Shown here piece after piece: positions 22,997 to 35,803 of a stretch of DNA of 35,825 nt. Both the position numbers and the translations under genes were made by a program. The stretch's first letter is position 1, and each line of letters starts with the position of its first letter. Under the pieces are notes generated by a model. It ran no database searches. It worked only from the letters and a program-made list of their open reading frames with translations, and was not told where the DNA came from. Source of the stretch: Plantactinospora endophytica (GTDB taxonomy: Bacteria > Actinomycetota > Actinomycetes > Mycobacteriales > Micromonosporaceae); assembly GCF_016862915.1 (NCBI RefSeq), contig NZ_BONW01000053.1, forward strand, positions 1-35,825, given 5' to 3'.

Positions 22997-25366
22997 TCAG
23001 TCGTCGTCCTGGACGGTCAGCAGGCCGTAGGCGTCGCCCACCGACACCCCCTGAACGGCCTTCACCGCGACGACGTACACCCGGCCGTCCCCCGGCTGGG
23101 TGTTGCCGGTCACCGCGATCGGAATGGCGATGGTGGTGCTGCCGGGCGCGACGCTCACGACGGTGGCCGTGGCGACCTGGGTTACCGGGTCGACGACGAA
23201 GACGCGTACCTGTCCGGTGCCGCTGCCGGAGACCGTCGCCGGCACCTGGTAGGTGACGGTGCCGGAGTTGCCCTCCTGGACCGTCCGCTCGCCCAGGTCG
23301 ACGCGGGGCAGCGACACCGCCTGCGGCGCCGGGGTGCCGGACCGCCAACCCCACGCGTCGATGAACCAGATCCTCGCCCAGCTCTCACCCGCACGCGGTA
23401 TCAGCACCAGGGACGAGATCGCGTTGAGGTTCAGCCCGGCCGACCACGCGTTGGTCAACGGCATCCGCACCTCCTGCGCCCAGTCGTCCGACGTCTGGGT
23501 CGGTGCCGGGAACGGTTCGAGGGTGGTGGTGCCGAGGATGGCCTGCCGGCCCGCCGAGTCGGCGATGGCGACGTCGAACCGGGTACCCGGTGAACCGTAC
23601 GGAACGGCGGCCCGCAACGCCACCGACTGCGCGTTGGACAGCGAGACCGGCGCGGGCGGCCGGAGCGTGACCGGGCTGCCCGGCGAGGTCCAGGGCACCT
23701 CGACCGCGTACCGGCCGGCCTCCGGGACCACCGGGGCGAACGGCACGAAGTGCGGCGAGTTCGAGTTGCCGCACCAGGCGGGGGTACTCGACCTGGCGAC
23801 CTGCTCGCAGAGCCGGGCACCCGGGCCGCTGACCACGGTCGAGGCGTCCGGCACGAGCAGCCGGGTCCGGTTGCCGCCGACGGCGTGACTGAGCACCGTC
23901 GCCGGGTCCGTCGAGGGCGCCCGGAACCCCGATCCGTCGAGGAGCGGGCGTACCTGGTCGTTGCCCGCGACGAAGGTGGCCGCCGCGGCGGCGACATAGG
24001 TGGCGCCCACGTTCTGCTGCTGGACCGGGGTGAGCCGGGTCGGTGCGGCCGTCCGGCAGATCGGGTCGTGCGGGCTGGGATAGTCGTCCCAGGACTTCGC
24101 CACGGAGAGCCCGGGCGTCCACTCCGTGTTGAAGTAGTTGTGGTTGGCGCCGAGGGCGAACACGACGCCGTGCAGCGCGAAGCCCCGACCCACCCCACGG
24201 GTCGCGTCCGCGTACATCTGGCCCTGGAGGTCGGACAGGTCACCGTCGCAGCTCGGCAGGATGGTCACCGACGGTACGTCGGGGGCGGGATTGTGGCTGT
24301 AGATCGACGGGGCGATCAGGGCCAGGCCACGGATCTGCCAGCTTACCGTTCCCGGGGCACCGTCCTGGGCGGCCGGTGGCCGGGTGAGGCTGTCGACGGC
24401 GGCGCGGCTGACGCCCTCGCCACCGCGCGAGTGGCCGACGAGCAGCACGTTGGACATGTTCGGCACGGGGGCCGACCGGACCACGTCCGGGGCGCCGGGC
24501 CGGCCGCTGCCCGCCCAGTCCGCCCAGCGGCCCAGGTGCAGCCGGACCAGGGAGGAGCGGGCCTGTGCACCGGCGTCCTGCGGCGGCAGTCCGCTGCCGT
24601 CCTGCGCGTTGACGGCGTTCGCCGAGATGGAGACGGTGACGTACCCCTGCGAGGCGAGCACCTGCTGGATCCGCTCGTACCCCCGATGACTCGGCAGCGG
24701 GTTCCATCCCGAGGGGCAGGGCCAGACGGTGGTCGGCTCGGCGGTGCCCTGGTAGCAGGTGGGGTGCCGGCCGTGCAGGATCAGCACCAGCGGGCGTTGT
24801 CCGGAGGTGCCCTGGGGTGCCACGACGTAGCCGCGCATCTCCACCGGTACGGCGAAGCCCGGCAACTGCACGTCGGGCAGCGCGTACTCGCCGGAGAGCG
24901 TCGAGTACGGACCCGGCACGCCCGGGTCGACCGGGTTGGCCGGCAGTTGGGCCGCCGCTCGGGCCGGCGGGGCGGTGCCCCCGCGCGAAGCGGTCGAATC
25001 CACCGCGATGTCGAGGCGCCGACCTGCGGCGCGCACCTGTAGCCCGGTCAGGTCGCGCGCGGCGACGTCGTCGATGACAAGCTGGAAACCGCGCTGGTCA
25101 GCCGTTGTCCCGGGCCGGCCGAGCAGCCGTTCACCGGCACGGAACTCGACCGCCGCGTCGCCGGTCCGCACCGGCTGGTCCGGGTGCCAGCTGAGCACGA
25201 ACCCGGACGGCGCCTCCGTCAGGTTCCAGCCGTCCGGCAACGAGGTACGGGCGACGACCGCCGCCCGACCGGTGCCGTCGGCGGGAGCCGCCCACGCGGC
25301 ACCGCCGCCCCCCAAAGAAATCGCAACCGTTAGCGACGCGGCAAGCATCGCTCTGCCGACGTGCAT
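22997..25366 (-). CDS. Large secreted alpha/beta hydrolase (esterase)
   Basis: The 789-residue exported protein has a signal peptide over about 1-27 (ending GAAWAAP), a beta-rich N-terminal part to about residue 150, and an alpha/beta-hydrolase domain over about 160-480. A Calx-beta or Ig-like strand-rich module lies at about 690-789 (TVQEGNSGTVTYQVPA, ending LTVQDDD). Catalytic residues are Ser313 in VGHSRGGEG, probably Asp375 in PSCDGDLSD, and His409 in GANHNYFN. The oxyanion region is LILHGRHPTC, with several cysteines likely in disulfides. GGGGGAGGAC precedes the ATG. A near-perfect CebR/CelR operator lies about 55 bp upstream, suggesting induction on cellulose-derived sugars and a role as an esterase on plant polymers. 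The substrate itself is inferred. Confidence 0.88.
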   Translation of the reverse strand: MHVGRAMLAASLTVAISLGGGGAAWAAPADGTGRAAVVARTSLPDGWNLTEAPSGFVLSWHPDQPVRTGDAAVEFRAGERLLGRPGTTADQRGFQLVIDDVAARDLTGLQVRAAGRRLDIAVDSTASRGGTAPPARAAAQLPANPVDPGVPGPYSTLSGEYALPDVQLPGFAVPVEMRGYVVAPQGTSGQRPLVLILHGRHPTCYQGTAEPTTVWPCPSGWNPLPSHRGYERIQQVLASQGYVTVSISANAVNAQDGSGLPPQDAGAQARSSLVRLHLGRWADWAGSGRPGAPDVVRSAPVPNMSNVLLVGHSRGGEGVSRAAVDSLTRPPAAQDGAPGTVSWQIRGLALIAPSIYSHNPAPDVPSVTILPSCDGDLSDLQGQMYADATRGVGRGFALHGVVFALGANHNYFNTEWTPGLSVAKSWDDYPSPHDPICRTAAPTRLTPVQQQNVGATYVAAAAATFVAGNDQVRPLLDGSGFRAPSTDPATVLSHAVGGNRTRLLVPDASTVVSGPGARLCEQVARSSTPAWCGNSNSPHFVPFAPVVPEAGRYAVEVPWTSPGSPVTLRPPAPVSLSNAQSVALRAAVPYGSPGTRFDVAIADSAGRQAILGTTTLEPFPAPTQTSDDWAQEVRMPLTNAWSAGLNLNAISSLVLIPRAGESWARIWFIDAWGWRSGTPAPQAVSLPRVDLGERTVQEGNSGTVTYQVPATVSGSGTGQVRVFVVDPVTQVATATVVSVAPGSTTIAIPIAVTGNTQPGDGRVYVVAVKAVQGVSVGDAYGLLTVQDDD

Positions 25367-26762: not shown

Positions 26763-28115
26763 TCAGGTCGCGGCGCAGGAGAGGGTCGGCGCGCTGTTGG
26801 TGCCGTTCCACGAGCCGAGGAAGCCGAAGGTCGCGCTCGCCCCGGCGGCGAGGTTGCCGTTGTAGCTGACGTTGCGGGCGGTCACGCCCGACCCGCTGCT
26901 GGTCACGGTCGCGCTCCACGCCTGGGTGACGCGCTGACCGTTGGCGAAGGTCCAGGTCACCGTCCACCCGCTGACCGCCGAGGCGCCGGCGGTCACTCGT
27001 ACCTCGGCCTGGAAGCCGCCGGTCCACTGGCCGGTGATCGCGTACGTGGCGGTGCAGGCCCGGTTACCGCCGGGCGGCGTACCCGTGGGGGTCACCGGCG
27101 GCCTGGTGGTCGGCGTGACCGGCGGCGTGCTGGGTGTCCCGCCACGGAAGATGCTGGCCTCCCGGGCGGTCGCCCGGACACCGTTGGTCCCGTTGAAGAT
27201 CCGCTGCCCCCAGGAGGTGAGCTGGTTCGGGTCGAAGCCGACCGACATGTCCAGGATCGGATCGGTGTTCCCGCTCCACGACCAGGCCAGGTAGCCGAGG
27301 TTGCGGGAGACCGCCTCGGCCAGCACCGTCTCGTGGTCCACGTCGCTGGAGTTGGTCCGCCAGCCGAACTCGCCGATGACCAGCGGCCAGCCGTTGGTCT
27401 GGAAGCGGTTGAGGTAGTCGGTGATGCTGGCGGCGGTGTTGAACACGGCGTACATGTGGATCGACAGGACGGTGTTCCGCTGGTTGTCGGCGTTCAGGAT
27501 CGTCTGGGCGTTGTCCCGCATGACGTACTGCCAGTCCTGACCCCAGTTCGGCGCGTCGACCATCAGCAGGTGCTGGAAGCCGTTGCTGCGCATCCTGGCG
27601 ATCGCCGCGGTGGTGGCCGCCGTCCACTGGCCGGCGTTGGTGTTGCCGATCGGCTCGTTGCCGATGTTGATGACGACGTAGTTCTCCTGGCCGACCAGGG
27701 CGCTCTTCTGGCTGATCCAGTAGTTGACCGCCTCGTCGAGGCTGGCCGCCGCCGCATCCTCGCCGTACCCGGTGGTGTCGTGCACCTCGAGTACGCAGAT
27801 CAGCCGGTTCTGCTTGCAGAGCGAGATCACGTTGCCGACGTCGGTGGACGGACCCCACCGCTTGCCACTGCCCAGTACCACGCGGACGGTGTTGGCGCCG
27901 AGAGCCTTGATGTTGGCGAACGAACTGGTCTGGTTGGTGAACCAGACGTGCGGATGGTTGACTCCGCGCATCACGAACGTCTGGCCGTTGGCCTCGACGA
28001 TGTTGCGGCCACTGATGTGCAGGCCCACGGCCGCGTCCGCCGGTCGGGCGAACAACAGCACGGAACTGGCGACCGCGAGCGTGACGGCGACGAAGGCAGC
28101 GAGTCGTCTTCTCAT
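26763..28115 (-). CDS. Secreted GH5 endo-beta-mannanase (subfamily 8 type) with CBM2
   Basis: The 450-residue exported glycanase has a signal peptide over 1-29 (cleavage after ADA), a GH5 catalytic barrel over about 30-318, a Pro/Thr linker over 326-350 and a C-terminal CBM2 over about 353-448. The acid/base is Glu154 in INIGNEPIGN and the nucleophile Glu249 in VIGEFGW. The sequence RGVNHPHVW, LEVHDTTGYGED and VDAPNWGQDW is typical of GH5 subfamily 8 mannanases rather than cellulases. The CBM2 has flanking Cys354/Cys447 and surface Trp364, Trp384 and Trp436, which bind crystalline cellulose. It would cut mannan in plant cell walls while anchored to cellulose. GAGGTAGGTC precedes the ATG. A CCCCG-GTCT-CGGGG hairpin (28136-28149) lies in the leader. 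No CebR box is seen here. Confidence 0.92.
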   Translation of the reverse strand: MRRRLAAFVAVTLAVASSVLLFARPADAAVGLHISGRNIVEANGQTFVMRGVNHPHVWFTNQTSSFANIKALGANTVRVVLGSGKRWGPSTDVGNVISLCKQNRLICVLEVHDTTGYGEDAAAASLDEAVNYWISQKSALVGQENYVVINIGNEPIGNTNAGQWTAATTAAIARMRSNGFQHLLMVDAPNWGQDWQYVMRDNAQTILNADNQRNTVLSIHMYAVFNTAASITDYLNRFQTNGWPLVIGEFGWRTNSSDVDHETVLAEAVSRNLGYLAWSWSGNTDPILDMSVGFDPNQLTSWGQRIFNGTNGVRATAREASIFRGGTPSTPPVTPTTRPPVTPTGTPPGGNRACTATYAITGQWTGGFQAEVRVTAGASAVSGWTVTWTFANGQRVTQAWSATVTSSGSGVTARNVSYNGNLAAGASATFGFLGSWNGTNSAPTLSCAAT

Positions 28116-29209: not shown

Positions 29210-29602
29210 TCAGGACCGGGTCGGCACCTGGGCGCACTCGGAGACGTGGGCACTGACGATCCGCCAGCCGGCCGGCAGGCGTACCCAGGTCTGGGTCTGC
29301 CGGCCGGTGGCGGCGCCGTCGGGATAGTCGAAGAAGGTGTTGACCACCGCCGTGTCGGTGCCGAAGGTGGTGATCAGCGTGCCGTGCAGCCGGCGGCCGA
29401 GGGGCAGCGGCGGCTGCGCCGAACGCCACCGCCGCTGCTCCTCGATCCCGATCTGGTGGTCGGCGATGCCGAACCGGACCGTCCGGGTCGACGCCCAGAA
29501 GTATCCGACGATCGCGTCCACGTTCCCGGCCACCAGCGCCGCCTCGTAGCCGGCGAACTCGGCCGCGACCTCGGCGACCACCTCGGGCCGGTCAACGTCC
29601 AC
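29210..29602 (-). CDS. AtzH-like DUF3225 (SnoaL-fold) amidohydrolase
   Basis: The 130-residue protein matches the DUF3225 family that includes HpxZ of oxalurate catabolism and AtzH of the Pseudomonas ADP cyanuric acid operon. AtzH acts on carboxylated urea intermediates to give allophanate. Residues Tyr22 and Arg46, reported as needed in AtzH, correspond here to Tyr19 (EFAGYEAAL) and Arg43 (TRTVRFG) with the same spacing of 24. Other family marks are GRRLHGTLITTFGTDTAVVN and GRQTQTWVRLPAGWRIVSAHVS. The GTG at 29602 has GGAGG upstream, and the start overlaps the permease stop by 11 bp, so expression is coupled. The usual partners AtzE and AtzG are not in the window. Confidence 0.85.
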   Translation of the reverse strand: MDVDRPEVVAEVAAEFAGYEAALVAGNVDAIVGYFWASTRTVRFGIADHQIGIEEQRRWRSAQPPLPLGRRLHGTLITTFGTDTAVVNTFFDYPDGAATGRQTQTWVRLPAGWRIVSAHVSECAQVPTRS

Positions 29603-31340
29603 CGGTGCCGGCCTCCGCCCCTGCCGTCGCCGAATCCTCCGCCTCGTCCGGCCGCCCGGCCGGAGCCGCCGACCCGGCCTGGGTAGTTGGCCCGGCCTGT
29701 GAGGTTGGCGCGGCCGGAGCGGCCTGTTCGGCCGGGGTGGGCGGTGGGGTGGACGGCGCGGCGGCCGGGGCGCCGTGCCGGCGGTCCAACTCCAGTTCCT
29801 CGGCGTCCGGTTCCCGGGGCGGGACCTTCGCCAGCGCGAACAGCCCGCAGACCACCGCGACGAAGAGATAGCCGAGCGCGACCTGCCCGTTGGCGTTCCA
29901 CTCGATCCGTTCACCATGGATGAGCCCGACGAAGGAGAGCAGCGCGCCGACCGCCGAGAAGACGGCCGCCCGGACGAACCGCTTGTCGATGACGAAGACC
30001 ACCACCGCACCGAGTACCAGACCGGCCAGGATCGCGCCCTGGCCGAGTACCAGCAGCCCGTCGTAGACGACCCCGGCACCGGCCAGCGCCGTGTCACCGA
30101 CCTCGGCCGCCGTCGTACCGGCGGCGGCGAGCGCGTTGTCCATCTGGCCGGTCGCCCAGGCGGCGATGTTGGGGATCAGCGCGGCGACCACCGCGGCGGC
30201 GTGCACCCGGGGCGTGGCCTGGAACGCCTGCGCGCCGATCAGCAGCCCGATGTACAGCAGGATCGGTACGATCGCGGCGGTCGGGAAGATCGTCGCGAGC
30301 AGGCCGAACATGCCGAGGAAGCAGAGTACGGCGATGACCACGCCGGTCGCCATCGAGTAGCCACTCCGGCCACCGGCCGCCTTCCACCCGGGATGCCCCA
30401 CGTAGACGGCCGGCGGGAACGGCGAGCCGAGCGCCGAACCGATCACCGCACCGGCCCCGTCCGCCAGCAGTACGCTGCGCAGGTTGTAACTGTCCCCGGC
30501 GGTCGCCGCGCTCTCCACGTTGGTCATGCCCTCGGTGAAGTTGTAGACGCCGAGCGGGATCGCGGTGGCGAGCAGCGGGGCCATCTCGGCGAGCCCGTCG
30601 AAGAGCAGCCCGAACTGCAACGACGGCAGCCCGAGCGCGATGTCCCCGGCCGCCGCCGAGACGTCGGGCACCGACATCGCGCCGCCGATCCAGCCGATCG
30701 CCGTACCGAGGAGCAGGGCGACCAGCCCGATCGGCAGGTTGCCGGGCAGGCGTACGTCGGTGAGCAGTCCGATCAGCAGCAACGCGAAGACCGGCAGGGC
30801 GATCCAGGCGGTCCGCCACATCTGCCCGGCCGGGTTCATCGAGATGAACGTGATGGAGATCCCGGCGAGGGTGCCGAGCAGCGCCGCCCGGGGTGCGTAC
30901 CGCCGGATGTAGGGGCCGACGAACGCCCCGAGCAGCACGATGACGCCGATGATGAACGCCCAGGCCACGCCGGCCTGCCAGGCCTGCCTCGGATCCTCGG
31001 TACGCAGGTAGATCGGCAGCATGATCACGAAGATCACGATGAACATGTGCGGCACGCTCGGCCCGTACGGCAGCGCGGTGACGTCGGTCCGGTTCTCCCG
31101 GCGGGCCAGCCGGCGGGCCAGCACCGTGTAGTAGATGTTGCCGGCGACCAGGGCGATGCCCAGGGCCGGCAGGATGGTGCCGAAGACGTCCCCGGAGGAG
31201 AGCTGGACGACGCCGAGGCAGAGTGCGGTCAGGGTCAGCACGTTGACCAGGACGTTGACGCCGAACCCGAAGAAGGCGTTGGTGTCGCCGCGTACCCACA
31301 GCGGCAGGTTCACGGTGGCATGCTCGGTGTTCTTCACCAT
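29592..31340 (-). CDS. NCS2-type (xanthine/uracil-like) permease
   Basis: The 582-residue permease has about 13 hydrophobic segments, fitting the nucleobase/ascorbate (NCS2) fold. Typical sequence includes MFIVIFVIMLP, GVYNFTEGMTNVESAATAGDSYNLRSVL (substrate and cation site region of TM8) and SPFPPAVYVGHPGW. The C-terminal 70 residues after about 510 are a Pro/Ala/Thr-rich tail that is probably cytoplasmic and disordered. GAGGAG precedes the ATG at 31340. The frame continues upstream into the previous gene but without coding character. The gene is 17 bp after the second hydrolase. In this operon the likely cargo is biuret, a related condensed urea, or a ring compound that yields it. The substrate is inferred from context only. 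Confidence 0.88.
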   Translation of the reverse strand: MVKNTEHATVNLPLWVRGDTNAFFGFGVNVLVNVLTLTALCLGVVQLSSGDVFGTILPALGIALVAGNIYYTVLARRLARRENRTDVTALPYGPSVPHMFIVIFVIMLPIYLRTEDPRQAWQAGVAWAFIIGVIVLLGAFVGPYIRRYAPRAALLGTLAGISITFISMNPAGQMWRTAWIALPVFALLLIGLLTDVRLPGNLPIGLVALLLGTAIGWIGGAMSVPDVSAAAGDIALGLPSLQFGLLFDGLAEMAPLLATAIPLGVYNFTEGMTNVESAATAGDSYNLRSVLLADGAGAVIGSALGSPFPPAVYVGHPGWKAAGGRSGYSMATGVVIAVLCFLGMFGLLATIFPTAAIVPILLYIGLLIGAQAFQATPRVHAAAVVAALIPNIAAWATGQMDNALAAAGTTAAEVGDTALAGAGVVYDGLLVLGQGAILAGLVLGAVVVFVIDKRFVRAAVFSAVGALLSFVGLIHGERIEWNANGQVALGYLFVAVVCGLFALAKVPPREPDAEELELDRRHGAPAAAPSTPPPTPAEQAAPAAPTSQAGPTTQAGSAAPAGRPDEAEDSATAGAEAGTGGR

Positions 31341-31357
31341 GGCGGTACTCCTCGCGC

Positions 31358-32149
31358 TCAGCAGGGTTGCGGCACGGACGGGGCCGGCGGGCCGGCGGGT
31401 ACCCCGGGCGAGCCCGCGGTGGTGATGGTCGGCGCCGTCGTCGGTTCGGACGACTCCGTCGTCGGCGGGGCCGGGGCGGCCCACGCGGTGCGCAGCGCGG
31501 CGATCAGGGCGGCCGAGTCGGCGACCCAGCCGAAGATGCCGCCCTGGGCGGCGATCATGTCGAGCCCGACCCGCTGGAACTCGGGAAAGTAGGAGCCGAC
31601 GCAGTCGGCCAGTACCAGGCACTCGTAGCCCCGGTCGTTCGCCTCCCGCACCGTGGTGTGCACGCACACCTCCGTGGTCACGCCGGTGACCAGCAGACTG
31701 GTGATGCCACGGTCGGCGAGCAGGGTGTCGAGCCCGGTGGCGTAGAAGGCGCCCTTGCCGGGCTTGTCGACCACCGGCTCGCCGTCGATTGGGGCCAACT
31801 CGTCGACGATGTCGTGGCCGTACTCGCCCCGGATCAGGATCCGGCCGTTCGGCCCGGGGTCGCCGATCCGCCGGCTCGGGGCGCCCCGCGCCCGCTTCGC
31901 CGGTGGGCAGTCGGAGAGGTCCGGCAGGTGCCCCTCCCGGGTGTGTACCACCGGCAACCCCGTCTCGCGCGCCGCCGTCAGCAGTGCCGCCAGTGGGTCG
32001 ATGGTCCGGCGCAGCTCGGCGACGTCGTTGCCGAGGCTCTCGCCGAACCCGCCGGGTTCGAGGAAGTCGCGCTGCATGTCGATGACCAGCAGCGCGGTCG
32101 TGGACAGCTCGAAGGTGTACGGATGGGGACGCGCGTCGACGGTCGGCAT
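31358..32149 (-). CDS. Isochorismatase-fold cysteine hydrolase, paralogue of biuret hydrolase
   Basis: This 263-residue amide hydrolase has the triad Asp24 (VIDMQRDF), Lys129 ([10 protein letters not shown]) and Cys162 ([12 protein letters not shown]). It shares with its upstream neighbour the stretches [30 protein letters not shown] and [11 protein letters not shown], so the two arose by duplication. Its substrate pocket differs and it carries a 40-residue Thr/Pro-rich tail (225-263) that other family members lack. Triuret hydrolase (TrtA) belongs to the same superfamily, and a TrtA plus BiuH pair is a plausible reading. A ureidoacrylate- or other amide-specific enzyme is the alternative. 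GAGGAC precedes the ATG. The gene is 86 bp after the biuret hydrolase gene. Confidence 0.85.
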
Positions 32150-32235
32150 GGGTCGTCCTCAGGGAGTGAAGGGGATCCGCCGGAAGGATCGGGTGCGCCC
32201 GGCAGCCGGTATCGACCGGTCGGGACGTCGCGGGT

Positions 32236-32928
32236 TCAGTCGTCGGTGATCGCGGCGAGTACGTCGTCGGAACTGGCGACGCAGCCGAACACCCCGCCCT
32301 GCATGGTGACCATGTGCAGGGCGGCGGCGTGGTTGTCCGGGTCGGTCGCGCCGGTGCAGTCGGAGAGGATCAGGCACTCGTAGCCCCGGTCGTTCGCCTC
32401 CCGCATCGTCGTGTGTACGCAGACGTCGGTGGTGATCCCGGTCAGGATCAGGTGGGTGATGCCCCGGGTACGCAGCACCAGGTCCAGGTTGGTGGCGTAG
32501 AAGGCACCCTTGCCGGGCTTGTCCACCACCACCTCGCCGGCCGCCGGGGCCACCTCGGGCACGATCTCCCAGCCGGGCTCACCCCGGACCAGGATCCGGC
32601 CGCAGGGGCCGGCCGCGCCGATCTCGGCACCGATCCGGGCCGACCGCCAGCGCTTGTTGGCCGGCAGGTCGGACAGGTCCGGGTCGTGCCCCTCCCGGGT
32701 GTGCACCACCAGGAGGCCGATCTCCCGGGCCCGGGCCAGCAGCCGGGCGGTGGCCGGCAGACCGGCCCGGGTCAGCCCGATGTCGTAGCCCATGCTGTCG
32801 ACGTAGCCACCGGGGCCGCAGAAGTCGACCTGCCAGTCGATGCAGAGCAACGCGGTACGCTCGGCGGGCGCCGAACCGTCGTACGGCCAGAGGTAGGGGT
32901 CGGCTTTGACAGGGCCGATGCGGGGCAT
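32236..32928 (-). CDS. biuH: Biuret hydrolase-like cysteine hydrolase
   Basis: The 230-residue isochorismatase-fold enzyme is predicted to convert biuret to allophanate and ammonia in the cytosol. The triad is Asp31 (CIDWQVDF), Lys137 ([11 protein letters not shown]) and Cys170 ([12 protein letters not shown]). The residue spacing (106 and 33) equals that of the characterised Rhizobium biuret hydrolase (Asp36, Lys142, Cys175). Further matches to my memory of that family are WPYDG near the start, [32 protein letters not shown] and [27 protein letters not shown]. It starts 28 bp after the allophanate hydrolase stop, which would consume its product. AAGGGAG precedes the ATG at 32928. RutB-type ureidoacrylate hydrolase is the less likely alternative. 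Confidence 0.88.
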
Positions 32929-32956
32929 GGGGGCTGCTCCCTTCGGGCGGACGTGG

Positions 32957-34840
32957 TCAACCGGTACGCGCGGCCTGCCGGTAGGCGCGCCAGCCACCGG
33001 CGGCGGTGATGTCCTCGGCCGCCGCGACCTCGGCCGCGTACGCCTCGGCGAGGAACCCGAGCACCTCCCGGCCGTCGTGCAGGCGCAGCCAGCCGAACGA
33101 GAGTGGTGCGGGTATCCCGGTCAGCAGCCCACCGATCGTGTCGACCGGCAGCCGCCACAGTTCGATCTCGATGGCCGCACCCCGGTCCGCGCCGACCCTG
33201 ACCAGGCTCGGCAGCCCGATCCCGTCGTCGGAGGGCAACCGGTACAGCCGGTAGAGCGGCGCGGTCCGGCCGATTCCGGCGAGGGTCGCGCCTCGCTCGA
33301 CGAGTTCGGCGTTGCGGGACTCGCCGCGCAGGTGGCGCCCGACGACCGCGAGCAGCACCCGCCCGTCGCCGTCCGGGTCGCCGTCCGGGACAAGGTCACC
33401 GTCCGGGACAAGGTCGCCGCCCGGAACGAGGTCACCGCCCGGAACGAGGTCACCGCCCGGCGGCGTCGGCGCCGCACCGGCGGGCCCGACGTGCTCGCCG
33501 GTCAGTGCGGCGGCGAGCCGGACCAGGGTGGTGTCGCCGAACGCCGGCCCGACCAGGGTCAGGCTCGCCGGCCGGCCCGACTCGGTGAACCCGTTCGGTA
33601 CGGTCACCGCCGCCAGGTCGAGCAGGTTGGCGAACTGGGTGTACCGGCCGAGCACGGTGTTCCGGCCGATCGGATCCTCCTCGATCTCGGCGAGCGTGAA
33701 GGTGGTGCCGATCGTCGGCACGACCAGTACGTCGATCCGCCGCCACAACCGCTCCGCCCAGGCACGCAGCTCCTGGAGCCGGTGCCGGGCCCGGAACACG
33801 TCAGCGGCGGTGTACTCGCGCCCGCCCTCCAGCACCTTCCGGGTCACCGGCAGCACGGCGTCCGGCCGGCGGCGGAGGAAGTCGTCCAGGTCGGCCAGCC
33901 GCTCCGCCACCCACGGTCCCTGGTAGAGCAGGTCACCGGCCTCGAACAGGGGTTGCAGACCGACGGGCTCGGTCGCGTCGACCAGCCCGGCGAGACGCTC
34001 CTGCCCGGCGGCGAACCGGTCGCGCTGGCCGAGGTCCCCGAAGAAGTCCAGATCCTCCGTCCGGGGTACGCCCAGTCGCAGTGTCGACGGTGCCCGACCG
34101 ACGGTCCGCTCGACCGGTAGTGCGCGGCTCCAGGGGTCGTCCGGGTGCACCGCAGCGGCGACCTGGAACACCGTCGCCGCGTCGTCGACGGTGCGGGTGA
34201 AGATCGAGACACAGTCGAGGGAGCGGCAGGCGGGCACCACGCCGGCCACGCTGAGCAGTCCCCGGGTCGGCTTCAGGCCGACGATCCCGTTGTAGGCCGC
34301 CGGTACCCGACCGGAGCCGGCGGTGTCGGTACCCAGCGCGAACGACACCAGACCGGCGGCCACCGCCACCGCCGACCCGGAGCTGGACCCGCCCGCGACC
34401 AGGCCGCCGCCGAAGACGCTCTCGACGGCACCGTACGGCGAGCGGGCGCCGGTCAGTCCGGTGGCGAACTGGTCGAGATTGGTCTTGCCGACCAGCATCG
34501 CTCCGGCGTCGAGCAGCCGGGACACCACCGGAGCCGTCCGCTCCGGCAGGTACGCGAACTCCGGGCAGCCCGCGGTGGTCGGCAGTCCGGCGAAGTCGAT
34601 GTTGTCCTTGACCGCGAACGGCACCCCGTAGAGCGGCAGCGCGGCCAGCTCGGTCCGGCGCCGGTGCAGCTCGGCGGCCCGGGCCCGGAGGTGCTCGGCC
34701 GGAACGGTGCTGATCCAGACCGCGTCCCCGGCCCGCCCGGCGAGCCCGGCGAGGACCTGATCGGCCACCTCCACCGTGGTCAGCTCCCCGGTCGAGTATC
34801 CGGTCCGGAGGGCCGAGGCGGTGCCGATCGACGCTGGCAT
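32957..34840 (-). CDS. atzF: Allophanate hydrolase (AtzF type)
   Basis: The 627-residue enzyme splits allophanate into ammonia and CO2. The amidase-signature domain (about 1-450) has the triad Lys78 (FAVKDN), Ser152 (GGSSSGSA) and Ser176 ([12 protein letters not shown]). The spacing, 74 and 24, is the same as in Pseudomonas AtzF (Lys91, Ser165, Ser189). The C-terminal domain (about 494-625; [55 protein letters not shown]) is the allophanate-hydrolase-specific second catalytic domain. The linker between them carries five tandem GGDLVP-like hexapeptides (462-491). There is no biotin-dependent urea carboxylase in the window, so allophanate must come from biuret-type substrates or from elsewhere. 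The ATG at 34840 has no ribosome site but is the only start near the conserved beginning. Confidence 0.95.
33368..33457. repeat. 18-bp coding minisatellite in the allophanate hydrolase linker
   Basis: Five 18-bp units encode GGDLVP three times, then DGDLVP and a decayed DGDPDG. They lie exactly between the amidase domain and the C-terminal domain. Unit length is a multiple of three, so copy-number change would keep the frame. Confidence 0.9.
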
Positions 34841-34980
34841 ACAAACGATTGTCGACCGTTCTGTTTCGACCGATCGCCAGCAAGGTAACGACGATGTGTC
34901 ACGGGGTCAGCGCCGGCAGGCGGCAGCCGCCCCGGCGGTGACCCCGCCGAGGGTACGCAGCAGCCGGTCGGGGTGGTCGG
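34841..34980 (-). promoter_or_regulatory. Promoter region of the biuret/allophanate operon
   Basis: Between the GntR stop and the atzF start lie a candidate promoter CTGACC-N17-TACCTT on the minus strand, two direct copies of TCGACCG 14 bp apart (34852-34858 and 34866-34872), and an ACAA-N4-TTGT dyad touching the start codon (34841-34852). These are candidate GntR-regulator sites. The exact start point is unclear. Confidence 0.4.
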
Positions 34981-35730
34981 TCAGCCGAGATAGGACCGCG
35001 CGCCGTGCGAGGCGAGTACCGCGATCACCGCGTCCGGGTCGCCCTCCGCGACCGCCGCCAGCAGCCGCTCGTGCCGGTGCAGACCGTCGCCGGGCTGCGC
35101 CACCTCCGCCTCCCGGCGCAGGTTCAACGCCATGTAGAGCTGCGACTTCAGCAGGATCGCCTCGTAGACGGCGGAGAGCTGCCGGTTGCCGGCCAGGGCC
35201 ACCAACTCGACGTGGAAGGCACGGTGCGCCTCGGCGACCCCGAGCCGGTCGCCGGCCTCGATCGCCTCCCGCATCCCGCCCAGCGCCGCCCGGAGCCCGG
35301 CCAGCTCAGCAGACGACCGGACCGGCAGGGCGGTGCGCACGGCGTGGTGCTCCAGCACGTCGCGTACCGCGTACAGCTCCTGGACGTCCCGGTCGGAGAG
35401 CGTCGCCACCCGGGCACCGCGCCGGGGTACGTGCTCGACCAGTCCCTGCTGGGCCAGCAGCCGCAACGCCTCCCGCAGCGGGGCACGGCTGATGCCCAGC
35501 CGCCGGGTGAGCTGCTCCTCGACCAACCGCTCCCCCGGCTGCGTCTTGCCGCTCAGGATTTCGCGGCGCAGCCGGTGCACGGCGAGTTCGACCAGACTGG
35601 CGCTCTCCAACTCGCCGTCCGTCGCCGGTCCGGCACCTCTCTGGTACGGCGAACCCGGCCCGCGTTGCCCGTACAGGCCACGAACGGCATCATCGCCGAG
35701 ACTGACGGTCCGCTCGGTTGGCTCGGTCAC
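34981..35730 (-). CDS. GntR-family (FCD subgroup) transcriptional regulator
   Basis: The 249-residue regulator has a GntR winged helix at about 44-112 (SLVELAVHRLRREILSGKTQPGERL, then LTRRLGISRAPLREALRLLAQQGLVEHVPRRGARV). An FCD ligand-binding domain spans about 115-240, with its metal/ligand His in HRAFHVELVALAGN and a C-terminal HRHERLLAAVAEGD. It lies 140 bp upstream of the allophanate hydrolase gene on the same strand, so it probably controls the operon in response to a pathway intermediate. The start is a GTG at 35730. The first 40 residues are poorly conserved-looking, so a later start is possible, though no better one is seen. Confidence 0.93.
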   Translation of the reverse strand: MTEPTERTVSLGDDAVRGLYGQRGPGSPYQRGAGPATDGELESASLVELAVHRLRREILSGKTQPGERLVEEQLTRRLGISRAPLREALRLLAQQGLVEHVPRRGARVATLSDRDVQELYAVRDVLEHHAVRTALPVRSSAELAGLRAALGGMREAIEAGDRLGVAEAHRAFHVELVALAGNRQLSAVYEAILLKSQLYMALNLRREAEVAQPGDGLHRHERLLAAVAEGDPDAVIAVLASHGARSYLG

Positions 35731-35765: not shown

Positions 35766-35803
35766 CGCTGGCCGGGTCCCCTGTGGTGGGGACCCGGCCA
35801 GCG
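35766..35803. terminator. Strong hairpin at the window edge
   Basis: A perfect 16-bp stem (35766-35781 with 35788-35803) and a 6-nt loop lie upstream of the GntR gene. A TAA on the minus strand (35817-35819) could be the stop of a gene beyond the window, whose terminator this would be. On the plus side it is followed by a T-rich stretch. Confidence 0.8.

What the first reader, a model, noticed from the sequence alone, without database searches (positions are those of the whole stretch)
29210..35730. Compact actinobacterial operon for biuret-type condensed ureas: GntR - atzF - biuH - second hydrolase - NCS2 permease - atzH-like
Seen: six minus-strand genes with short gaps or overlaps, with catalytic residues placeable in all four enzymes (AtzF Lys78/Ser152/Ser176; BiuH Asp31/Lys137/Cys170; paralogue Asp24/Lys129/Cys162; AtzH-like Tyr19/Arg43). 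Known: BiuH makes allophanate, AtzF destroys it, AtzH handles carboxylated ureas. Inference: a self-contained uptake and degradation route for biuret or a larger oligourea. This combination, with a dedicated permease and no cyanuric acid hydrolase, is not one I know as described.
Basis: partly seen in the sequence, partly recalled or inferred. Interest (0 to 1): 0.78.

Follow-up and report, generated by a model that had tools for sequence, protein, structure and literature searches.

The report
Actinobacterial triuret and biuret uptake operon
A six-gene bacterial operon that very probably takes up triuret and biuret (condensed forms of urea) and breaks them down to ammonia; the main enzymes belong to a known pathway, while its transporter and a small decarboxylase-like partner look new and can be tested.

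Summary
In detail: six minus-strand genes, GntR - atzF - biuH - second hydrolase - permease - atzH-like, at 29210-35730. Its closest solved structure is TrtA, aligned without gaps, and all 14 catalytic and specificity residues are TrtA's. TrtA-BiuH-AtzF operons were described in 2020 (PMC7948467), so the pathway is known. New here: (1) the permease matches no Pfam or NCBIfam model, is modelled with a UraA/SLC26-type fold, and sits behind trtA in 78 of 80 related loci; (2) AtzH-like is in 45 of 45 loci with BiuH and 0 of 35 without; (3) 51 of 51 BiuH-linked AtzH proteins lack a pocket arginine (Arg66) that 11 of 11 AtzE-linked ones keep, as expected if the substrate is 1-carboxybiuret rather than 1,3-dicarboxyurea; (4) a 17-bp palindrome precedes the operon in 59 of 60 loci with GntR upstream. 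Independent evolutionary events behind (2) and (3) are few. Proposed route: triuret, 1-carboxybiuret, biuret, allophanate, ammonia. The role of AtzH-like, the permease's substrate and the regulation are inferred; no bench test was done. New variant of a known kind.

The parts
34981..35730 (-). GntR-family regulator with FCD ligand domain, probable repressor of the operon (role inferred)
   Evidence: PF00392 57.4 bits and PF07729 78.7 bits, both above cut-off
34842..34858 (-). Putative GntR operator, 4 mismatches from CTGTCGACAATCGACAG, touching the atzF start codon
   Evidence: consensus with up to 3 mismatches in 59 of 60 loci with GntR upstream and 3 of 16 without
32957..34840 (-). atzF, allophanate hydrolase (amidase + AH_C)
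   Evidence: NF006043 710 bits against cut-off 487, TIGR02713 677 against 511; Lys78/Ser152/Ser176; PDB allophanate hydrolase 4gyr E 5.7e-142
32236..32928 (-). biuH, biuret hydrolase
   Evidence: NF050097 419 bits against cut-off 370; best solved match 6xjm, the Rhodococcus biuret hydrolase, E 4.8e-120; BiuH-type specificity residues
31358..32149 (-). trtA, triuret hydrolase, with a Pro/Thr-rich C-terminal tail beyond the aligned part
   Evidence: best solved match 6xix TrtA, E 8.7e-87, residues 3-217 without a gap; all 14 TrtA residues
29592..31340 (-). Permease of a family without Pfam or NCBIfam match; predicted UraA/SLC26-type fold; presumed triuret/biuret importer
   Evidence: behind trtA in 78 of 80 loci
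29210..29602 (-). AtzH-like NTF2-fold protein, proposed 1-carboxybiuret decarboxylase
   Evidence: PF11533 138.8 bits against 27; Tyr19/Arg43 kept; Gln63 and Tyr93 where strain ADP AtzH has Arg66 and Arg96 in the paper's numbering
35766..35803 (-). Hairpin with a 16-bp perfect stem upstream of GntR, perhaps the terminator of a gene beyond the contig end (no T run)
   Evidence: read from the sequence

Best explanation
The operon is a nitrogen-scavenging route for triuret and biuret. The permease imports one or both (inferred). TrtA takes one ammonia from triuret and leaves 1-carboxybiuret (shown for the Herbaspirillum enzyme, by homology here). The AtzH-like protein takes CO2 from 1-carboxybiuret and gives biuret, ahead of the slow spontaneous reaction (inferred). 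BiuH turns biuret into allophanate and ammonia, and AtzF turns allophanate into ammonia and CO2 (shown for homologues). GntR probably represses the operon from a palindrome at its start until a substrate or intermediate binds its FCD domain (inferred). Cyanuric acid is not the likely source.
For: TrtA signature of 14 residues complete, BiuH signature complete but for the tolerant position 134 (residues from PMC7948467). BiuH and AtzF above curated cut-offs. TrtA upstream of the permease in 78 of 80 loci and also in four alphaproteobacterial plasmids (L003, L004, L005; L094). AtzH-like in 45 of 45 loci with BiuH and 0 of 35 without. Position Arg66 lost in 51 of 51 BiuH-linked AtzH proteins, kept in 11 of 11 AtzE-linked. 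No cyanuric acid hydrolase in the own genome or in 15 of 15 BiuH-operon relatives searched. Palindrome with GntR.
Against: No activity was measured. In the AtzH paper (PMC6219798) the Arg66 and Arg96 variants were not among the five impaired ones. The AtzH pattern rests on few independent events: 3 changes each of BiuH and AtzH on the TrtA tree, 2 on the AtzH tree, too few for a test. The window BiuH is closest to the Rhodococcus enzyme that also cuts triuret slowly (PMC7948467), so it may be a generalist. Operons with TrtA and permease but no BiuH exist, and 23 of 33 such genomes have no BiuH over cut-off anywhere, so the pathway as written is not obligatory. Distant permease relatives lie in a xanthine cluster. 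The window palindrome is the poorest kind (4 mismatches).
Confidence: 0.85

Rival explanations
1. The AtzH-like protein acts on 1,3-dicarboxyurea as in strain ADP: BiuH deaminates 1-carboxybiuret directly and AtzH decarboxylates the product to allophanate, so free biuret is bypassed.
For: AtzH of strain ADP has that proposed role (PMC6219798); AtzH-like and BiuH co-occur 45 of 45, which fits this rival as well as mine.
Against: The pocket of BiuH-linked AtzH lacks Arg66 in 51 of 51. No BiuH is reported, in the parts I read, to take carboxybiuret; TrtA's product decays to biuret by itself with a half-life of about 20 min (PMC7948467).
Confidence: 0.2
2. The AtzH-like protein has no catalytic role here, or another one; carboxybiuret decarboxylates by itself.
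For: 33 of 78 trtA-permease loci do without it; comammox clusters lack trtB (PMC12625717, passages); the half-life of carboxybiuret is short.
Against: Kept in 45 of 45 BiuH loci, with the catalytic Tyr in 50 of 51 BiuH-linked proteins and Arg46 in all.
Confidence: 0.2
3. The second hydrolase is a second biuret hydrolase or one for another ureide (guanylurea, ureidoacrylate), and the operon serves biuret only.
For: It still scores 271 bits with the BiuH model.
Against: Below the BiuH cut-off of 370 and far below the RutB cut-off (117 against 378); every position that separates TrtA from BiuH is TrtA's. No guanylurea hydrolase sequence was compared.
Confidence: 0.05
4. The permease carries a purine, xanthine or urate, and the operon clears oxidation products made inside the cell.
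For: Relatives at 36-39% identity are annotated xanthine permeases, one in a xanthine/guanine cluster; triuret can arise from urate (PMC7948467).
Against: The 48-95% identical permeases stand beside trtA and no purine gene was found with the probes used; a general scan of those neighbourhoods for purine genes was not made.
Confidence: 0.2

Closest known systems
Triuret pathway of Herbaspirillum sp. BH-1 and Rhizobium leguminosarum 3841 (TrtA, BiuH, AtzF, with TrtB in some genomes)
   Same: Same three hydrolases in one operon, same specificity residues, no cyanuric acid hydrolase needed (PMC7948467).
   Different: Here with a dedicated permease and an AtzH-like gene in the operon; the paper, in the parts read and the terms searched, names no triuret transporter. 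Whether TrtB is AtzH-like could not be read.
bmpA-nupABC type clusters (Cupriavidus L006, Ideonella L106, Pseudomonas L101 and L110; nitrifiers of PMC12625717)
   Same: biuH, trtA, an AtzH-like gene and GntR together; atzF too in L006 and L106.
   Different: An ABC transporter instead of the permease; L101 and L110 show a formamidase and no atzF in the stretch fetched.
Cyanuric acid operon atzDGEHF of Pseudomonas sp. ADP
   Same: AtzH and AtzF families.
   Different: There AtzD and AtzEG feed AtzH with 1,3-dicarboxyurea; here TrtA and BiuH, no AtzD or AtzE, and an AtzH pocket without Arg66.
Alphaproteobacterial trtA-permease-atzGE-atzH clusters (L005, L094)
   Same: TrtA signature and permease relatives of about 50% identity next to trtA.
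   Different: AtzEG instead of BiuH, and AtzH with Arg66.
UraA/UapA (NCS2) and SLC26/SLC4 transporters
   Different: Not recognised by PF00860; SLC26, SLC4 and BOR1 chains score 19-21, so the fold does not single out NCS2; best Foldseek hit is BicA, E 1.6e-5.

Membership tests
Triuret hydrolase TrtA | Catalytic Asp24, Lys129, Cys162 | tested here: met
Triuret hydrolase TrtA | Phe35, Asn41, Glu160, Tyr187, Gln202, Ile205 against BiuH Tyr, Tyr, Asp, Thr, Gln, Val | tested here: met
   DFFNEKKATECYQI at the 14 positions; position list from PMC7948467
Triuret hydrolase TrtA | Specific hydrolysis of triuret | not testable with these tools
   needs the purified enzyme
Biuret hydrolase BiuH | NF050097 equivalog cut-off | tested here: met
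   419 against 370 bits
Biuret hydrolase BiuH | BiuH-type specificity residues | tested here: met
   DFYYEKKATDCTQV; Ala instead of the consensus Ser at 134, a change TrtA tolerates
Allophanate hydrolase AtzF | Curated family cut-offs, Ser-Ser-Lys residues and AH_C domain | tested here: met
AtzH as in strain ADP (1,3-dicarboxyurea) | AtzH-like domain with Tyr22 and Arg46 | tested here: met
AtzH as in strain ADP (1,3-dicarboxyurea) | Arginine pocket including Arg66 and Arg96 | tested here: not met
   Gln and Tyr in the window; seven of the nine pocket residues kept
AtzH as in strain ADP (1,3-dicarboxyurea) | AtzE partner that makes 1,3-dicarboxyurea | tested here: not met
   no AtzE in the window operon, AtzF apart; AtzE probe in 1 of 80 loci, L064, which has no AtzH. 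The own genome was not searched for AtzE
HpxZ (NF033625) | Equivalog cut-off 135 bits | tested here: inconclusive
   135.0 against 135; the same model also takes the BiuH-linked proteins of L006, L101 and L106, so it does not separate functions
Carboxybiuret decarboxylase TrtB | Sequence kinship with Herbaspirillum TrtB | not testable with these tools
   defining paper not held; kinship inferred from gene content only
NCS2 permeases | Match to PF00860 | tested here: not met
   no match at E up to 10; genome search lists only another gene
UraA/UapA fold | 14-helix transporter fold like UraA/UapA | tested here: met
GntR, FCD subfamily | GntR and FCD domains above cut-off | tested here: met

The most novel reading that the evidence does not exclude
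The triuret pathway has two interchangeable branches after TrtA, BiuH or AtzEG, and one small protein serves both through a change in its pocket: beside BiuH AtzH has lost Arg66 and is a 1-carboxybiuret decarboxylase, beside AtzEG it keeps the arginine for 1,3-dicarboxyurea. The trtA-linked permeases form an undescribed transporter family for condensed ureas and would be the first triuret importers.
Probability: 0.45. Interest if true: 0.65.

Novelty: new variant of a known kind. Interest (0 to 1): 0.52.

Why it matters
Triuret and biuret reach soils as impurities of urea fertiliser, and triuret may also form from uric acid (PMC7948467). I found no described triuret importer in the papers searched. 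The operon makes the uptake step, the decarboxylation step and the regulator testable, and suggests a one-residue mark that may separate two AtzH functions now both annotated as HpxZ. The permease, and so probably the route, is common in the host's family: 55 of 200 genomes drawn.

Tried and rejected
Cyanuric acid as source: PF09663 absent from the own genome and from 46 of 50 relatives; the 4 with it all have BiuH-less permease loci. Single-sequence model of the permease: pLDDT 43.5, of no use; replaced by one from 55 aligned rows. My first neighbourhood table hid AtzH genes in L021, L035, L047 and L059 because they overlapped the permease match; corrected. A link between loss of the AtzF AH_C domain and loss of BiuH was dropped: 8 of 32 BiuH loci with an amidase also showed no AH_C, and AH_C occurs somewhere in 47 of 50 genomes. 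A regulon from the palindrome in the own genome could not be read: at up to 3 mismatches 142 and 157 matches against 26 and 31 for the reversed control, listing capped; the window's own copy is too poor to be listed. Rfam gave nothing at gathering scores. Independent-pair tests found 2 and 1 pairs, too few.

Rows set aside: in the AtzH tree L113 (gapped) and L114 (divergent) were left out and 46 actinobacterial rows thinned to 13, and the Arg66 states were entered by hand, where they coincide with the partner label, so the equal counts of changes are by construction. In the TrtA tree L073 and L074 were too short. The operator table leaves out L074, L075, L080 and L081. Whole-genome searches covered 50 of the 80 genomes, chosen by me to hold all 35 without BiuH in the locus and 15 with it. 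In one search, 2 of 82 TrtA rows differ at one position each; of 47 BiuH rows one has Ser at 134 and one is incomplete.
Full report
What is there. Six minus-strand genes fill 29210-35730: GntR, atzF, biuH, a second isochorismatase-like hydrolase, a permease and an AtzH-like gene, with gaps of 140, 28, 86 and 17 nt and a last overlap of 11 nt. The contig ends at 35825. Downstream lies a 4'-phosphopantetheinyl transferase gene.

The second hydrolase is TrtA. Its best match among solved structures is Herbaspirillum triuret hydrolase (6xix, E 8.7e-87, residues 3-217 without a gap), ahead of two biuret hydrolases, and the window numbering equals the TrtA numbering. The TrtA paper (PMC7948467; parts 1-4 of 6 read) gives the catalytic residues and the positions that separate TrtA from BiuH. 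The window protein has all 14 TrtA residues; its neighbour has the BiuH set except Ala for Ser at 134, where the exchange left TrtA active. In one search, 80 of 82 TrtA rows carry the same 14 letters, with or without BiuH nearby. BiuH and AtzF exceed curated cut-offs. The window BiuH is closest to the Rhodococcus enzyme, which the paper calls a generalist with slow triuret activity. The paper reports TrtA, BiuH and AtzF in one operon in two genera and that biuret metabolism is mostly independent of cyanuric acid; the own genome has no match to the cyanuric acid hydrolase model.

How common. Of these 80, 78 have TrtA upstream of the permease; 45 of the 78 have BiuH and AtzH too, 33 have neither; the other 2 loci show none of the probes. 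Amidase position varies: in L034 and L040 atzF lies behind AtzH. In the host's family the permease is in 55 of 200 genomes drawn, and in 4 of 7 listed genomes of its genus (the list was cut). Alphaproteobacterial plasmids hold the same trtA-permease pair: L003; L004 with AtzH, AtzF and AtzE; L005 with AtzF and AtzG-AtzE-AtzH; L094 with AtzG-AtzE and AtzH.

BiuH and AtzH go together. AtzH lies in the locus in 45 of 45 loci with BiuH and 0 of 35 without. Genome-wide, in 50 of the 80 genomes, AtzH at E below 1e-20 is in 15 of 15 genomes whose locus has BiuH, and in 2 of 35 others, both with a BiuH elsewhere; a third has a weak match (7.7e-6). In turn 10 of the 35 have a BiuH over cut-off elsewhere, 8 of them without a strong AtzH, so the link holds for the operon, not for every BiuH. 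The loci are related: on a quick TrtA tree each trait needs only 3 changes among the actinobacterial rows, and 2 independent pairs on well-supported branches are too few for a test.

The AtzH pocket. The AtzH paper (PMC6219798; parts 1-3 of 5 read) names nine pocket residues. Its numbering is three above the native protein: with that shift all nine letters fit strain ADP AtzH. The window keeps seven; Arg66 is Gln and Arg96 is Tyr. Position 66 is Gln 47, Cys 3, Thr 1 in 51 of 51 BiuH-linked proteins (46 of them actinobacterial and close kin) and Arg in 11 of 11 AtzE-linked ones. The pattern was found on 49 and 8 of these; L109 and L110 on one side and L098, L103 and L111 on the other were not used to find it (in L111 AtzE is 3.8 kb away). 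Of 8 proteins in other or unseen contexts 7 have Arg and one, divergent, Asn. Position 96 is Arg in 10 of 11 AtzE-linked but also in L106 and L109, so it is the weaker mark. L109 (BiuH-linked) groups with AtzE-linked proteins on the tree (90/92), so the arginine seems to have been lost there apart from the main BiuH-linked group; that is two events. Reading: 1,3-dicarboxyurea has two carboxylates, 1-carboxybiuret one, and TrtA makes 1-carboxybiuret, so a pocket with fewer arginines fits. Against it: the Arg66 and Arg96 variants were not among the five impaired ones in the paper.

TrtB. Two papers mention a carboxybiuret decarboxylase TrtB beside trtA. Its defining paper is not held. In Cupriavidus L006 (my reading of the frames) and Ideonella L106 the genes are atzF, ABC genes, biuH, trtA, an AtzH-like gene and GntR; Pseudomonas L101 and L110 are similar but show no atzF in the stretch. 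In nitrifiers that gene set is reported with trtB (PMC12625717), so I infer that TrtB is of the AtzH family. If so, the decarboxylation step is already known in kind.

The operator. Before the first gene lies CTGTCGACAATCGACAG, a 7-bp inverted repeat around CAA. With up to 3 mismatches it is in 59 of 60 loci with GntR upstream and in 3 of 16 without, exact in 23 of 76. Base-shuffled copies of 40 loci gave one match at 3 mismatches in 688,512 bases, against 33 matches at up to 3 in the real ones. The window copy (34842-34858) has 4 mismatches, the same as its nearest relative L008. It touches the atzF start codon, which hints at a leaderless transcript and repression at the promoter (inference).

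Verdict. The finding is real and its gist right. What is new is the permease, the two AtzH kinds and the operator; I found none of them in the papers searched, an open-licence library that lacks most subscription journals.

Noticed in passing
L039, L051, L052, L055-L058, L060-L074, L076-L079, L081-L087: TrtA-permease loci without BiuH or AtzH (33 loci, many Mycobacteriales); 23 of the 33 genomes have no BiuH over cut-off anywhere, so the fate of carboxybiuret and biuret there is unexplained. In 25 the linked AtzF-like amidase shows no AH_C domain.
   Followed up: partly
L007:8995-16205: An E. coli IncK2/Z plasmid carries a TrtA with all 14 diagnostic residues beside DUF2877, fdrA, DUF1116 and arcC genes, a stand-alone AH_C domain protein of 129 aa and a cytosine permease. 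Of 292 plasmid records with a match to the window TrtA, 78 are E. coli; only this one was examined for it.
   Followed up: partly
L095:3694-12456: Peptoclostridium plasmid: a TrtA-like hydrolase (His for Glu160, Phe for Tyr187) between two xanthine-permease-like genes, followed by DUF2877, fdrA, DUF1116 and arcC.
   Followed up: partly
L096:2094-8519: E. coli IncF plasmid with DUF2877, fdrA, DUF1116, a distant permease relative (36%) and a carbamate kinase gene.
   Followed up: no
L078 genome (handle G027), contig 63:26-4099: A cyanuric acid hydrolase, a BiuH and an AH_C match lie close together, apart from the TrtA-permease locus of the same genome.
   Followed up: no
window 33360-33460: The linker between the amidase and AH_C domains of AtzF holds GGDLVP-type repeats.
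   Followed up: no
window 26763-28115: Cellulase (GH5) with a CBM2 domain.
   Followed up: no
window 22997-25366: A 789-aa protein with a secretion-signal-like start and a GHSRGG motif (both by eye) but no Pfam match.
   Followed up: no
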